A stretch of DNA of 64,000 nucleotides from Massilia sp. Root351 (GTDB taxonomy: Bacteria > Pseudomonadota > Gammaproteobacteria > Burkholderiales > Burkholderiaceae_D): contig NZ_LMDJ01000001.1 of the NCBI RefSeq assembly GCF_001425045.1, forward strand, positions 249,859 to 313,858, given 5' to 3'. The notes beneath the pieces are model-generated. The model had not been told where the DNA came from. It ran no database searches and saw nothing but the letters and a program-made list of their open reading frames with translations. Made by a program: the position numbers and the translations under genes. Positions 14,002 to 26,542 of this stretch are shown in pieces; the stretch's first letter is position 1, and each line of letters begins with the position of its first letter.

Positions 14002-14046
14002 TTGCACTCCGCCGCCGGCCGTTTTATACTGTTTGCATATACAGTA
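14002..14046 (+). promoter_or_regulatory. SOS (LexA) box over the nadK-recN promoter
   Basis: TTGCAC (14002-14007), a 17-base spacer and TATACT (14025-14030) form a good sigma-70 promoter. The -10 is overlapped by a LexA box at 14027-14046 with perfect CTGT-N8-ACAG half-sites (14029-14032 and 14041-14044). This fits the known SOS control of recN; here nadK would be co-induced. Confidence 0.88.
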
Positions 14047-22921: not shown

Positions 22922-23046
22922 GCGCCGCGGCGCCCCGGGTCCTGGGCGCTGGCCGGAGGGCGGCTTGGCGCTGCAAGCGCCGCACCCGCCAGGCTGACCC
23001 GCCCCTGACCCGCTAATTTTCGGTAGCTCCCCGCCTGCCTGCGATA

Positions 23047-23066
23047 TACTGTTTATATATACAGTA
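23047..23066 (+). promoter_or_regulatory. LexA (SOS) box before the radical SAM-UdgX operon
   Basis: CTGT (23049-23052), eight A/T bases and ACAG (23061-23064) form a perfect LexA box with extended TA flanks, 12 bases before the start codon. It overlaps a TATACT that could be the -10. The layout closely copies the nadK-recN box at 14027-14046. Confidence 0.88.
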
Positions 23067-23078
23067 TCGAGGCAATCA

Positions 23079-24320
23079 ATGGAGCTCACCGACAAGCTGG
23101 AAATCCTGGCCGACGCCGCGAAGTACGACGCCTCCTGCGCCAGCAGCGGCGCGCCCCGGCGTCACTCCATCGGCAAGGACGGCCTGGGCGCCAGCACCGG
23201 CATGGGCATCTGCCATAGCTACACGCCGGACGGCCGCTGCGTGTCGCTGCTGAAAATCCTGCTCACCAATTTCTGCATCTACGACTGCCAGTACTGCGTC
23301 AACCGCCGCACCTCCAACGTGCCGCGCGCCCGCTTCACGGTGCAGGAGGTGGTCAAGCTGACGGTCGACTTCTACCTGCGCAACTACATCGACGGCCTGT
23401 TCCTCAGCAGCGGCATCATCCAGTCTGCCGACTACACCATGGAACAGCTGGTCGCCATCGCCCGCGAGCTGCGCGAAACGCACCAGTTCCGCGGCTACAT
23501 CCACTTGAAGACCATTCCCGACGCCGATCCCGCGCTGATCGCCGCCGCCGGCCGCTATGCCGACCGGCTCAGCGTGAACATCGAGCTGCCGTCTCAGGAC
23601 AGCATCGCGCGCCTGGCGCCGGAGAAGAACGTGCACACCATCAAGCTGGCCATGGGCGCCATCCGCCTGCGGCTGGACGAAAAAGCCGAGGAACCGAAGG
23701 CGCCCGCCTTCGCCCCTGCCGGCCAGAGCACGCAAATGATCGTCGGCGCCGACGCCAGCGACGACAAGCACATCCTGGGCACGGCTGAAACGCTGTACAG
23801 CAGCTACAAGCTCAAGCGCGTGTACTACTCGGCCTTCAGCCCGATCCCGGACAGTCCGAAAAGCGTGCCGCTGGCGCCGCCGCCCATGCAGCGCGAGCAC
23901 CGCCTGTACCAGGCCGACTTCCTGCTGCGCAGCTACGGCTTCCGGGTCAGCGAACTGCTGCCGGGCGACGGCACGCAACCCGGCAACCTGGCGCTGGACA
24001 TCGACCCCAAGCTGGCCTGGGCGCTGGCCAACCGCGAGCATTTCCCGATGGATCTGAACCGCGCCGACGCGGCCATGATCGCGCGCGTGCCCGGCATCGG
24101 CCTGCGCAACGCGCAGCGCATCGTCGAGCTGCGGCGCCTGCGGCGGGTGCGCTACGCCGACCTGTCGCGCCTGCGCTGCAGCATGAAGAAGATCGCCCCC
24201 TTCATCATCGTGGCCGATTACGCGCCCGCGAGCGACACCACGCCGTCCGACACGCTGCGCCGCGCCATGGCCGATGCGCCGCAGCAGATGAACTTGTGGC
24301 CGGAGTTGCGGGCGGCGTAA
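23079..24320 (+). CDS. Radical SAM putative DNA modification/repair protein (UDG-linked)
   Basis: This 413-residue protein is a radical SAM enzyme. The [4Fe-4S] cysteines are Cys66, Cys70 and Cys73 in CIYDCQYC. Near residues 330-370 a helix-hairpin-helix stretch (VPGIGLRNAQRIVELRRLRR) suggests DNA binding. The family is known from genome surveys as a radical SAM protein linked to a uracil-DNA glycosylase-like partner, and the partner gene follows directly with its ATG overlapping this stop (TAATG). A perfect LexA box precedes it. Its chemistry on DNA is not established. Confidence 0.88.
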   Translation: MELTDKLEILADAAKYDASCASSGAPRRHSIGKDGLGASTGMGICHSYTPDGRCVSLLKILLTNFCIYDCQYCVNRRTSNVPRARFTVQEVVKLTVDFYLRNYIDGLFLSSGIIQSADYTMEQLVAIARELRETHQFRGYIHLKTIPDADPALIAAAGRYADRLSVNIELPSQDSIARLAPEKNVHTIKLAMGAIRLRLDEKAEEPKAPAFAPAGQSTQMIVGADASDDKHILGTAETLYSSYKLKRVYYSAFSPIPDSPKSVPLAPPPMQREHRLYQADFLLRSYGFRVSELLPGDGTQPGNLALDIDPKLAWALANREHFPMDLNRADAAMIARVPGIGLRNAQRIVELRRLRRVRYADLSRLRCSMKKIAPFIIVADYAPASDTTPSDTLRRAMADAPQQMNLWPELRAA

Positions 24321-25873
24321 TGGCCGGGCTCGTTCACTCCATTGCCGTGGCCGGCTTCGACGACTGGCGCGCGGCTGCGCGCGGACTGATCGTGCGCCGC
24401 GTGCCGCCTGAATCCGTACAATGGAGCGCACCTGGAGGCGGCGGCGACTTGTTCGGCGCCGTGGCCGGCCCGGCTCCCGTGCCCGGTACTGCCGCTCAGC
24501 CCGCTTCGCCCGCGATACCGCGTGCAGCTGTTGGCGTGGCCGCCGCCTCGGTTAGCGCAGCGTCCCTGGGCAGCGCAGCGTCCGTCGCGCCGGCAATGCC
24601 TGCGGCGTCCGCCATGCGCATTCCGCGCGAGCTGATGGCGCTGCTGCAAGGGGCCGCCTGCTACCGTGCTGAAGACCGTTGGGCCTTCCTGTACAAGATC
24701 CTGTGGCGCTGGCAGCAAGGCCAGCGGGAGGTGATGTCGATGGCGGACGAAGACGGCAACCGCTTGCACGGCATGGTCCGCGCCGTGCGCCGCGAAGAAC
24801 ACGACATGCACGCCTATTTGCGCTTCCGCGAACGGCCTGCGGGCGAGGGTGCGCCGCGCTTCGTGGCCTGGTTCGAGCCCGCGCACGACGTGCTGCCGCA
24901 AGTGGCGCAGCACTTCGCCGCCCGCATGGGCCGCGCCACCTGGCTTATCGCCACGCCGGAGGCCACCGTGCTGTGGGACGGCGCCGCGCTGCACGCCACC
25001 GGCCCGCTCGCGCGCGGCCCTGCCGACATCGAGGACGCCGGCGAAGCGCTGTGGCTCACCTACTACCGCAGCATCTTCAACCCCGCGCGCCTGAACCCGG
25101 ACGTGATGCACAGCCACGTGCGCTCGCGCTTCTGGAAGCATATGCCCGAAGCGGCGCTGGTGCCGGAGATGGTGTCGCAAGCGGCGGCCGGCGCGCGCCG
25201 CGTGGGCCAGGCCAGCGCCGTTGGCCGCCGCAGCGGCACCACGATTCCCATCGCGCCCGAGAAAGCGCAGCCCGAGCGCCAGCAGCCGCACACGCTGGAC
25301 GAATGCCGCCGCTGCGAACTGTGGCAGCACGCCACGCAAGCCGTGCCGGGCGAGGGCGCGCGGAAGGCGCGCATCATGCTGGTGGGCGAGCAGCCCGGCG
25401 ACCAGGAAGACCTGCAAGGCCATCCCTTCGTCGGCCCCGCCGGCGCGCTGCTCGACCGCGCCCTCGCGCAGGCCGGCGTGGACCGCGCCACAGTCTACGT
25501 CACCAACGCAGTGAAGCATTTCAAATGGGAACCGCGCGGCAAGCGCCGCCTGCACAAGACCCCCGCGCAGAAGGAGATCCTGGCCTGCCACTACTGGCTG
25601 GAGGGCGAACTGGAGCAGGTCGCCCCGCAAGTGGTGGTCGCACTCGGCAGCACCGCGCTGAAGGCCATCCTCGAAGACAGCCACGCCGCGCTGAAAGACT
25701 ATATGGAGCAGCCGGTGCAGCACGCCGGCCGCTGGGTGGTGGCCACCTACCATCCCGCCTACGTGCTGCGCGTGCCCGGCGCCGACGAAAAATCCCGCGC
25801 CCTTGCCGCCATGGTCGCCGCGCTGCGCAAAGCGCGCGAGATTATTGATGCACAGCAGAGGACCGGGCGGTAG
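24320..25873 (+). CDS. DUF4130-UdgX fusion, uracil-DNA binding/glycosylase-like repair protein
   Basis: This 517-residue protein has an N-terminal DUF4130-type domain (about 1-260) interrupted by an Ala/Pro-rich insert (about 46-100), and a C-terminal uracil-DNA glycosylase domain of the UdgX class (about 320-515). Motif A GEQPGDQEDLQGHPFVGPAG, ALGSTALKAIL and VATYHPAYVLR are present. KRRLH at 408-412 matches the UdgX KRRIH loop, whose histidine bonds covalently to the abasic sugar after uracil release; His412 is the equivalent. CRRC near residue 330 and a later Cys may bind an iron-sulfur cluster. The gene is translationally coupled to the radical SAM gene. Confidence 0.88.
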   Translation: MAGLVHSIAVAGFDDWRAAARGLIVRRVPPESVQWSAPGGGGDLFGAVAGPAPVPGTAAQPASPAIPRAAVGVAAASVSAASLGSAASVAPAMPAASAMRIPRELMALLQGAACYRAEDRWAFLYKILWRWQQGQREVMSMADEDGNRLHGMVRAVRREEHDMHAYLRFRERPAGEGAPRFVAWFEPAHDVLPQVAQHFAARMGRATWLIATPEATVLWDGAALHATGPLARGPADIEDAGEALWLTYYRSIFNPARLNPDVMHSHVRSRFWKHMPEAALVPEMVSQAAAGARRVGQASAVGRRSGTTIPIAPEKAQPERQQPHTLDECRRCELWQHATQAVPGEGARKARIMLVGEQPGDQEDLQGHPFVGPAGALLDRALAQAGVDRATVYVTNAVKHFKWEPRGKRRLHKTPAQKEILACHYWLEGELEQVAPQVVVALGSTALKAILEDSHAALKDYMEQPVQHAGRWVVATYHPAYVLRVPGADEKSRALAAMVAALRKAREIIDAQQRTGR

Positions 25874-25929: not shown

Positions 25930-26154
25930 ATGCAAACGAAACTTGAACTATTGGCAGCAGAGGCATTGAAGCTATCGCAGGGAGAGCGCGAGGCATTCGT
26001 GCAATTGCTAGTCGCCAGTTTGGATACGGAAGCTGGCAATGAAGACGCGCTTGCGGCCGAAGTCGAGCGTCGTATCGACGAAGTCGAAAGCGGGAAGACG
26101 AAGGTTATCCCCATGGCGGATGCCTTGGCGCTGGTGCGTGCGGGCTTGAAGTGA
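25930..26154 (+). CDS. Addiction module antitoxin (Unstab_antitox type)
   Basis: This 74-residue acidic helical protein has the pattern LLAAEALKLSQGEREAFVQLLVASLD followed by a Glu/Lys-rich second half. That pattern is typical of the PF09720-like antitoxins paired with ParE/RelE toxins. The ATG at 25930 has GAGGAG upstream. The stop overlaps the GTG of the toxin gene (GTGA). The toxin gene is frameshifted, so this antitoxin may now be an orphan. Confidence 0.8.
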   Translation: MQTKLELLAAEALKLSQGEREAFVQLLVASLDTEAGNEDALAAEVERRIDEVESGKTKVIPMADALALVRAGLK

Positions 26155-26443
26155 AACTGGTGATCGTTCCTGCGGCCCTCGTGGAATTGCAGGATGCGGC
26201 CGCTTTCTATACTGTGCAAGCGAATGCTGAGTTGGGGCGTGCGTTTGTGGCCGAGTTTGAGCGGGTCGTGAATCTTGTCTTTTCAGCCCCCAATTGGGCG
26301 CCGTTTTTCGCGGTGCCCGTCGCCGCTACTTTCTTCGCAGATTTCCTTATAGCGTCATCTATCAAGTGGCTCCAGAGGAACTGCGTGTGGTTGCGCTTGC
26401 TCATCAAAGGCGCCGGCCGGCCTACTGGGCTGGGCGGAAATAG
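26151..26443 (+). pseudogene. ParE/RelE toxin gene, frameshifted
   Basis: The frame starts well as a ParE/RelE toxin (VIVPAALVELQDAAAFYTVQ), but after APN at about 26292 the family pattern continues in a different frame: LGAVFRGARRRYFLRRFPY, then SVIYQVAPEELRVVALAHQR, to TAG at 26443. Adding one T in AATTGGGC (26292-26299) restores a 97-residue toxin of normal length. As it stands, translation would run off-frame to 26477. A loss-of-function mutation or a sequencing error explains this. Confidence 0.85.
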
Positions 26444-26542
26444 TATGCGACAAGAATCGCATATGAATAGCCGATAAGCTTCGTTTTCTTCATGAGGGGA
26501 GCGGCATAGACTGGGGGCATATTCAACGCAAGGACCAGTCCC

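What the first reader, a model, noticed from the sequence alone, without database searches (positions are those of the whole stretch)
23047..25873. Radical SAM plus DUF4130-UdgX operon under direct LexA control
A perfect CTGT-N8-ACAG LexA box lies 12 bases before the first gene, and the two genes are coupled (TAATG). The second protein carries the UdgX KRRLH loop, whose His makes a covalent link to uracil-derived abasic DNA. This puts a little-understood radical SAM/UdgX DNA repair pair into the SOS regulon and suggests that the radical SAM enzyme acts on, or resolves, damage-induced base lesions or the covalent UdgX-DNA adduct.
Basis: partly seen in the sequence, partly recalled or inferred. 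Interest (0 to 1): 0.75.

Follow-up and report, generated by a model that had tools for sequence, protein, structure and literature searches.

The report
SOS-controlled radical SAM–DUF4130–UdgX repair operon

Summary
lexA, recN, imuA and dnaE2 of the same genome have boxes of this type. 86 of 89 family loci keep a perfect CTGT-N8-ACAG (gene-body controls 0 of 267). In the phylum sample 48 of 53 loci have a perfect box of their clade's type: CTGT-N8-ACAG in 13 of 18 same-class loci, GTTC-N7-GTTC in 35 of 35 presumed alphaproteobacteria. So SOS control survives operator turnover. It is not new in kind: reported or predicted for Alphaproteobacteria, Verrucomicrobia and Bacteroidetes. The proposed function (radical SAM acting on the UdgX-DNA adduct) is disfavoured: all 53 radical-SAM genomes have DUF4130, but 13 lack UdgX, and 12 of those keep a box (9 perfect, 3 one-mismatch); 12 of 52 UdgX genomes lack the radical SAM gene; 0 of 12 stand-alone UdgX genes has a perfect box. 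The core is radical SAM + DUF4130; UdgX is an add-on. In some Alphaproteobacteria the operon adjoins or lies inside imuA-imuB-dnaE2. Most likely function: radical-based processing of damaged DNA beside translesion synthesis. Substrate unknown.

The parts
23047..23066 (.). LexA operator TACTGT-N8-ACAGTA
   Evidence: conserved in orthologues
23045..23050 (+). possible -10 element TATACT overlapping the operator's left edge (by eye only; the promoter scan listed no site)
   Evidence: negative scan
23079..24320 (+). radical SAM protein, TIGR03916 (rSAM_link_UDG), 413 aa
23136..23240 (+). residues 20-54: loop with C20, C45, H46, C54 invariant in 47 of 47 aligned proteins, modelled with pLDDT under 50; candidate auxiliary metal/Fe-S site (inference)
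23274..23297 (+). radical SAM cluster motif CX3CX2C (C66, C70, C73), invariant in 47 of 47
24000..24137 (+). helix-hairpin-helix region, residues 308-353 (scores just under the Pfam cut-offs)
24318..24322 (+). TAATG stop/start overlap coupling the two genes
24320..25873 (+). DUF4130-UdgX fusion protein, 517 aa
24356..25153 (+). DUF4130 part (TIGR03915), residues 13-278
25169..25831 (+). UdgX domain (TIGR03914), residues 284-504
25385..25399 (+). UdgX motif A, GEQPG
25541..25555 (+). UdgX signature loop KRRLH with the nucleophilic His
   Evidence: role of the His from PMC10359453 (passages)
14027..14046 (.). comparison site: LexA box of the same extended type upstream of NAD kinase-recN in the same window

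Best explanation
A LexA-repressed, damage-induced DNA-repair operon. LexA covers the promoter; RecA-triggered LexA cleavage would release a coupled two-gene message (operator shown; induction inferred from established SOS biology). The functional core is the radical SAM enzyme plus DUF4130: DUF4130 is its constant partner and probably binds the damaged DNA or nucleotide, while the radical SAM barrel with its HhH region generates a 5'-deoxyadenosyl radical that processes a damaged base or end (inferred). The fused UdgX domain is a facultative add-on that would cap uracil or abasic sites near these lesions (inferred from its motifs). The operon probably works alongside ImuA-ImuB-DnaE2 translesion synthesis (inferred from neighbours in some clades).
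For: Operator: of 89 family loci, 86 perfect CTGT-N8-ACAG, 1 with one mismatch, 2 without (L115, L116); gene-body windows 0 of 267 perfect, 3 of 267 with one mismatch. Phylum sample: 48 of 53 perfect for the clade's motif, 3 with one mismatch, 2 without; gene-body windows 0 of 159 perfect. Boxes of this type in the same genome: recN, two imuA genes, a DnaE2-type polymerase, uvrA (the second imuA and uvrA sites have one mismatch), lexA. Core pair: DUF4130 over cut-off in 53 of 53 radical-SAM genomes. UdgX facultative: 13 of 53 without it, 12 of those 13 with a box (9 perfect, 3 one-mismatch); 0 of 12 stand-alone UdgX genes with a perfect box. imu link: beside or inside imuA-imuB-dnaE2 in 7 of 80 named loci; imu genes beside it in 6 of 53 phylum loci. 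Enzyme class: CX3CX2C and radical SAM fold.
Against: No expression or binding data for this organism. The gene is patchy: 92 of 294 family genomes and 53 of 299 phylum genomes. No substrate is known to me, and no solved relative of the radical SAM protein or of DUF4130 was found by sequence. DUF4130 could be a scaffold or an enzyme rather than a DNA binder. UdgX is present in 40 of the 53 genomes, so it is a frequent companion. The three one-mismatch boxes of UdgX-less operons are reached by 6-12% of shuffles.
Confidence: 0.68

Rival explanations
1. One reading: the radical SAM enzyme acts on, or resolves, the covalent UdgX-DNA adduct.
For: In this window UdgX is fused to DUF4130 and coupled to the radical SAM gene; 40 of 53 radical-SAM genomes also carry UdgX over cut-off.
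Against: 13 of 53 radical-SAM genomes have no UdgX over cut-off; 12 of 52 UdgX genomes have no radical SAM gene; stand-alone UdgX genes exist.
Confidence: 0.08
2. A base-excision system in which UdgX is the main actor, dealing with uracil or misincorporated nucleotides left by SOS polymerases, with the radical SAM enzyme as helper; close to what PMC8565304 suggests.
For: Published suggestion (passages); UdgX motifs intact; operon beside imuA-imuB-dnaE2 in some Alphaproteobacteria.
Against: 12 of 13 UdgX-less operons keep a LexA box, 9 of them perfect, whereas 0 of 12 stand-alone UdgX genes has a perfect one.
Confidence: 0.15
3. A nucleic-acid modification rather than repair system (the family is named 'DNA modification/repair'), for example radical alkylation or thiolation of DNA, tRNA or nucleotides under stress.
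For: Best fold matches include lipoyl synthase, HydE and MiaB; invariant C20/C45/C54 outside the radical SAM motif.
Against: SOS operator kept across clades, HhH region, UdgX fusion and imu neighbours point to DNA damage; fold similarity does not show the reaction.
Confidence: 0.15

Closest known systems
SOS-regulated COG1573-COG4277 operon (PMC8565304: predicted in Bacteroidetes; says it was reported in Verrucomicrobia and Alphaproteobacteria, citing Erill 2016 and da Rocha 2008, which are not held here)
   Same: Same kind of gene pair under a LexA-type regulator.
   Different: Here the canonical CTGT-N8-ACAG operator in a betaproteobacterium close to Massilia/Duganella (named relatives); the published passages treat the UDG as the working part and do not separate the radical SAM-DUF4130 core from UdgX.
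UdgX of Mycobacterium smegmatis (PDB 6ajo)
   Same: GEQPG, TNAV and KRR[I/L]H aligned.
   Different: Here a C-terminal domain behind DUF4130, not a stand-alone protein; mycobacterial regulation was not examined.
SplB / spore photoproduct lyase and PA0069-type radical SAM proteins
   Same: Radical SAM enzymes tied to DNA damage; a PA0069-family gene in this genome has a one-mismatch LexA-like box beside it.
   Different: The window protein belongs to TIGR03916, with an invariant C20/C45/H46/C54 loop, an HhH region and a DUF4130 partner; no photoproduct lyase is among the 50 best fold rows shown, which does not exclude it.
Lipoyl synthase / HydE radical SAM fold group
   Same: Best structural rows (4u0o Z 18.4, rmsd 3.2, 229 aligned; HydE 7o1o Z 18.0, rmsd 3.2, 213 aligned).
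   Different: Sequence identity 12-17% in those rows; the extra cysteines are spaced C-X24-C-X8-C, not the CX4CX5C that I recall for lipoyl synthase.

Membership tests
TIGR03916 radical SAM (rSAM_link_UDG) | Score over curated cut-off across the model | tested here: met
   546.9 bits against 343.5, model positions 1-401 of 415
TIGR03916 radical SAM (rSAM_link_UDG) | CX3CX2C cluster motif | tested here: met
   C66, C70, C73 invariant in 47 of 47
TIGR03916 radical SAM (rSAM_link_UDG) | SAM cleavage activity | not testable with these tools
   needs protein
UdgX | Model TIGR03914 over cut-off; GEQPG motif A and KRR[I/L]H loop | tested here: met
   253.3 bits against 189.95; alignment to 6ajo and 6iod
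UdgX | Covalent His-AP-DNA adduct | not testable with these tools
   chemistry known for M. smegmatis UdgX (PMC10359453, passages)
DUF4130 / TIGR03915 | Curated cut-offs | tested here: met
   DUF4130 123.9 bits against 27; TIGR03915 185.2 against 112.25
LexA (SOS) regulon | Operator of the genome's own LexA type at the promoter, conserved in orthologues | tested here: met
LexA (SOS) regulon | LexA binding and damage induction | not testable with these tools
   no expression or binding data for this organism
Lipoyl synthase | N-terminal CX4CX5C auxiliary cluster motif (spacing recalled) | tested here: not met
   the extra invariant cysteines are C20, C45, C54
Spore photoproduct lyase (SplB) | SPL fold and active-site residues | tested here: inconclusive
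   radical SAM fold group found, SPL not among the 50 rows shown; residues not compared
DHH/DHHA1 phosphoesterase superfamily (for DUF4130) | DHHA1-like fold | tested here: inconclusive
   RecJ 5f56 Z 7.3, rmsd 5.2, 193 aligned; AlaRS C-Ala 6nly Z 5.3, rmsd 2.7, 69 aligned; no profile support, and the positive control also failed

The most novel reading that the evidence does not exclude
Radical SAM-DUF4130 is an undescribed kind of DNA-damage enzyme: an SOS-core radical enzyme with a second metal site (C20/C45/C54) and a DNA-holding partner, which reverses or trims a lesion that stalls translesion synthesis. Its SOS control has been kept or regained through at least three operator types (CTGT-N8-ACAG, GTTC-N7-GTTC, TGTTC-N4-GAACA), and in Xanthomonadaceae it has moved to a different regulon marked by GTCTCA-N5-TGAGAC together with a DEAD/DEAH helicase and uvrA.
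Probability: 0.3. Interest if true: 0.75.

Novelty: new member of a known kind. Interest (0 to 1): 0.45.

Why it matters
If the radical SAM-DUF4130 pair is the real SOS function, a widespread damage-induced enzyme with unknown chemistry has been filed under its optional UdgX partner. Genomes without UdgX, many Pseudomonas among them, let the core be tested cleanly. Keeping one operon under damage control while the operator changes is a strong sign that its product matters when DNA is damaged.

Tried and rejected
Adduct-resolution hypothesis: tested by co-occurrence in the same 299 genomes and disfavoured.

SOS control as a property of UdgX: rejected after comparing UdgX-less operons (12 of 13 with box, 9 perfect) with stand-alone UdgX genes (0 of 12 perfect; one-mismatch hits in L195, L202 and L203). 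Caveats: L192 and L193 have long N-terminal extensions, and L193 also a DUF4130 hit, so they may be remnants of fusions; 3 of the 12 (L201-L203) are second copies in genomes that have the operon; my pattern for the KRR-x-H loop did not match L197, L199 and L200, although all 12 score over the TIGR03914 cut-off.

SOS control tracking DUF4130 when the radical SAM gene is missing: L178, L204, L205 and the remnant L206 all have a perfect GTTC-N7-GTTC box, but L178, L204 and L205 have a divergent imuA next door that may own it, so this proves little.

A gene replacing UdgX in the 13 UdgX-less genomes and in G116, G072, G025: reading-frame lists of the neighbourhoods looked over by eye; none recognised, no family search of neighbours was run.

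DUF4130 as a diverged DHH/DHHA1 protein: the best structural rows are nearly all of that superfamily, but Z is under 8 and Foldseek has no match with E up to 0.001; hhalign gave nothing and its positive control failed too, so it stays a lead. SplB-like fold: not among the rows shown.

Promoter and terminator scan: no site. Phage origin: of 10 phage records with a match, one was read (an 'Acinetobacter phage' record); it carries glyS and glyQ and looks like a mislabelled bacterial contig. The 8 'Bacteriophage sp.' records from faecal samples were not examined.

Literature: ten searches. PMC4951493 and PMC2238201 are not held. In PMC10776899, PMC12700426, PMC12907096, PMC13384398 and PMC8102061 my terms had no occurrence.
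Full report
What is there. The window carries a perfect TACTGT-N8-ACAGTA palindrome at 23047-23066, twelve bases before the ATG of a 413-residue radical SAM gene (23079-24320), which overlaps by TAATG a second gene (24320-25873, 517 residues). The first is TIGR03916, the second TIGR03915/DUF4130 followed by TIGR03914 UdgX, all over curated cut-offs. The UdgX domain keeps GEQPG, TNAV and KRRLH when aligned with PDB 6ajo, which PMC10359453 gives as M. smegmatis UdgX; the covalent chemistry of that loop is taken from the same paper (passages).

Is the box real? The bare CTGT-N8-ACAG core with up to one mismatch is not enriched in the window (16 against 17.8 expected), so the core alone would not convince. 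The extended form does better: 15 sites with at most one mismatch in the 7.2-Mb genome, 3 for the reversed pattern. Seven of the 15 lie beside repair-type genes: NAD kinase-recN, this operon, two imuA genes, a DnaE2-type error-prone polymerase, uvrA and a PA0069-family radical SAM gene (the polymerase and UvrA were cut by the locus ends and score under their cut-offs). The other eight (L015, L016, L017, L021, L023, L024, L025, L027), three of them perfect sites, have no evident repair gene beside them. The genome's lexA has two CTGT-N8-ACAG cores in tandem just upstream, which shows that this is the operator type in use.

Conservation in the family. Of 294 sampled genomes of the same family, 92 hold the radical SAM gene. 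89 loci were examined (L028-L116, the window's own genome included); left out were the G260 fragment, the contig-edge G329, and G056, which is counted in the phylum set below. L114 has a disrupted reading frame but was kept. 86 have a perfect CTGT-N8-ACAG within -200 to +15 of the expected start, one has one mismatch, two (L115, L116, 60-62% identical proteins from one genus) have none; of 267 equal-sized gene-body windows 0 are perfect and 3 have one mismatch. The 89 loci show 87 distinct 60-base upstream sequences.

Conservation across the phylum. In 299 sampled genomes, 53 have the radical SAM gene over cut-off. For the 18 in the same class, CTGT-N8-ACAG is perfect in 13, one mismatch in 3 (reached by 6-12% of single-base shuffles), absent in 2 (G511, G530). 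For the 35 in other classes, a perfect GTTC-N7-GTTC (or its complement) is present in 35; 159 gene-body windows have 0 perfect matches to the class's motif. Gene starts were extrapolated from the alignment, so distances are approximate. In the 80 named loci kept, 59 have a perfect box (15 CTGT, 44 GTTC), 13 one mismatch, 8 none; gene-body controls 0 of 240 perfect. Of 5 verrucomicrobial loci, 4 have TGTTC-N4-GAACA at -13 to -16 with at most one mismatch (L242 perfect; L233, L241, L262 one; L231 has two). That this is the verrucomicrobial LexA motif is recalled; the paper is not held.

Which gene carries the SOS link? DUF4130 is over cut-off in all 53 radical-SAM genomes and in 3 others. UdgX is over cut-off in 52 genomes but missing from 13 of the 53 (G093, G133, G654, G460, G483, G511, G622, G666, G689, G713, G724, G535, G615: five family groups), and present in 12 genomes without the radical SAM gene. 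Of the 13 UdgX-less operons, 9 have a perfect box, 3 a one-mismatch box and 1 none. Of 12 stand-alone UdgX genes none has a perfect box. In 11 named Pseudomonas loci (L215-L217, L219-L226) no UdgX was found within the stretch held (L224 is cut before the second gene, and for L220, L222 and L223 no start for the second gene was set). So the regulated unit is radical SAM + DUF4130, and UdgX rides along where it is fused.

Genomic company. In 7 of 80 named loci the operon adjoins imuA-imuB-dnaE2: divergent in three Bradyrhizobium, Henriciella and Methylopila; lying between imuB and dnaE2 on the same strand in a Sphingomonadales MAG (L281) and Alteraurantiacibacter (L286). In the phylum sample 6 of 53 loci show imu genes beside it (L145, L146, L148, L149 imuA and imuB; L143, L147 an imuB end), a lower bound because most flanks held were 1.5 kb or less. 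In the Bradyrhizobium cases the single box lies between the two transcription units and may serve both.

Structure. The radical SAM model (pLDDT 83.2, pTM 0.81) matches many radical SAM enzymes (best Foldseek E 4.4e-7, for a methyl-coenzyme M reductase glutamine methylase; best Z 18.4 for lipoyl synthase, HydE and MqnE within 1). Residues 20-54, modelled under pLDDT 50, hold C20, C45, H46 and C54, invariant in 47 of 47; a missing metal cluster would look like this, but that is an inference. The HhH region scores just below Pfam cut-offs. DUF4130 (pLDDT 82.5, pTM 0.75) has no significant fold match; its weak best rows are mostly DHH/DHHA1 proteins such as RecJ, unsupported by profiles. No solved relative of either was found by sequence.

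Mechanism. Shown: operator, gene coupling, families, motifs, conservation, co-occurrence. Inferred: LexA repression and damage induction here; DNA as substrate; DUF4130 as lesion-binding partner; UdgX as cap for uracil or abasic sites; co-operation with translesion synthesis. The adduct-resolving role is not excluded for fused forms but cannot be the general function.

Novelty. PMC8565304 (passages) already predicts SOS control of the COG1573-COG4277 operon in Bacteroidetes and cites reports of it for Verrucomicrobia and Alphaproteobacteria; PMC3765255 (passages) calls DUF4130 a predicted mutagenesis-related enzyme associated with SplB-like radical SAM proteins and uracil DNA glycosylases. The window is therefore a new betaproteobacterial member. 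I did not find in the held library a statement that the radical SAM-DUF4130 core is SOS-controlled without UdgX; most hits were seen only as listings.

Side result. L228-L230 (Xanthomonas, Stenotrophomonas, Pseudoxanthomonas) and G530 lack the usual boxes and instead carry GTCTCA-N5-TGAGAC 22 bases before the radical SAM gene. In 40 genomes of G530's family the exact palindrome occurs in 26, one to three times each, and the reversed pattern never. Of 52 sites read (9, 43), 16 precede a DEAD/DEAH helicase, 11 the radical SAM gene (4 of these are the loci from which the motif was read), 2 uvrA, and 23 something else, including one recA. How many of the 40 genomes hold the radical SAM gene was not counted. 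The regulator is unknown; the one paper search on it listed, among its 12 rows, no paper holding TGAGAC together with Xanthomonas.

Noticed in passing
L318-L369 (Xanthomonadaceae and the family of G530): Rare palindrome GTCTCA-N5-TGAGAC, 1-3 per genome where present with 0 reversed-pattern controls, upstream of a DEAD/DEAH helicase (16 of 52 sites), the TIGR03916 radical SAM gene (11), uvrA (2) and once recA: a candidate second DNA-repair regulon with unknown regulator.
   Followed up: partly
L327, L330, L349, L363: The same palindrome lies roughly 140-200 bases before MraZ-like reading frames in these loci (family checked for L330 only; the rest by eye); meaning unknown.
   Followed up: no
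L231, L233, L241, L242, L262 (Verrucomicrobia): TGTTC-N4-GAACA with at most one mismatch at -13 to -16 of the radical SAM gene in 4 of 5 loci: a third operator type for the same operon.
   Followed up: partly
L281, L286: The radical SAM-DUF4130-UdgX genes lie between imuB and dnaE2 on the same strand.
   Followed up: partly
window 14027-14046: Second perfect extended LexA box in the window, upstream of NAD kinase-recN.
   Followed up: yes
L022 (G000:C12:590693): One-mismatch LexA-like box next to a PA0069-family radical SAM gene, a second radical SAM protein possibly under SOS control.
   Followed up: no
window 25930-26477: Unstab_antitox (PF09720) antitoxin gene and a following ORF without Pfam match that looks, by eye, like a frame-disrupted RelE/ParE-type partner.
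   Followed up: no
L287 (CAKLQH020000003.1): Record labelled 'Acinetobacter phage' holds glyS, glyQ and a radical SAM gene followed by a 'probable DNA metabolism protein' of DUF4130-only size: probably a mislabelled bacterial contig.
   Followed up: partly
plasmid records H11-H30 and others: 158 of 72,556 plasmid records hold the radical SAM gene (Phaeobacter 58, Paracoccus 15, Azospirillum 11 and others; 142 predicted non-mobilizable), so the operon often sits on second replicons; one (Phaeobacter inhibens) was read and has a UdgX-family second gene.
   Followed up: partly
L178, L204, L205: DUF4130 (with or without UdgX) divergent from imuA in genomes where no radical SAM gene was found: apparent loss of the core enzyme in some members of one genus group.
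   Followed up: partly
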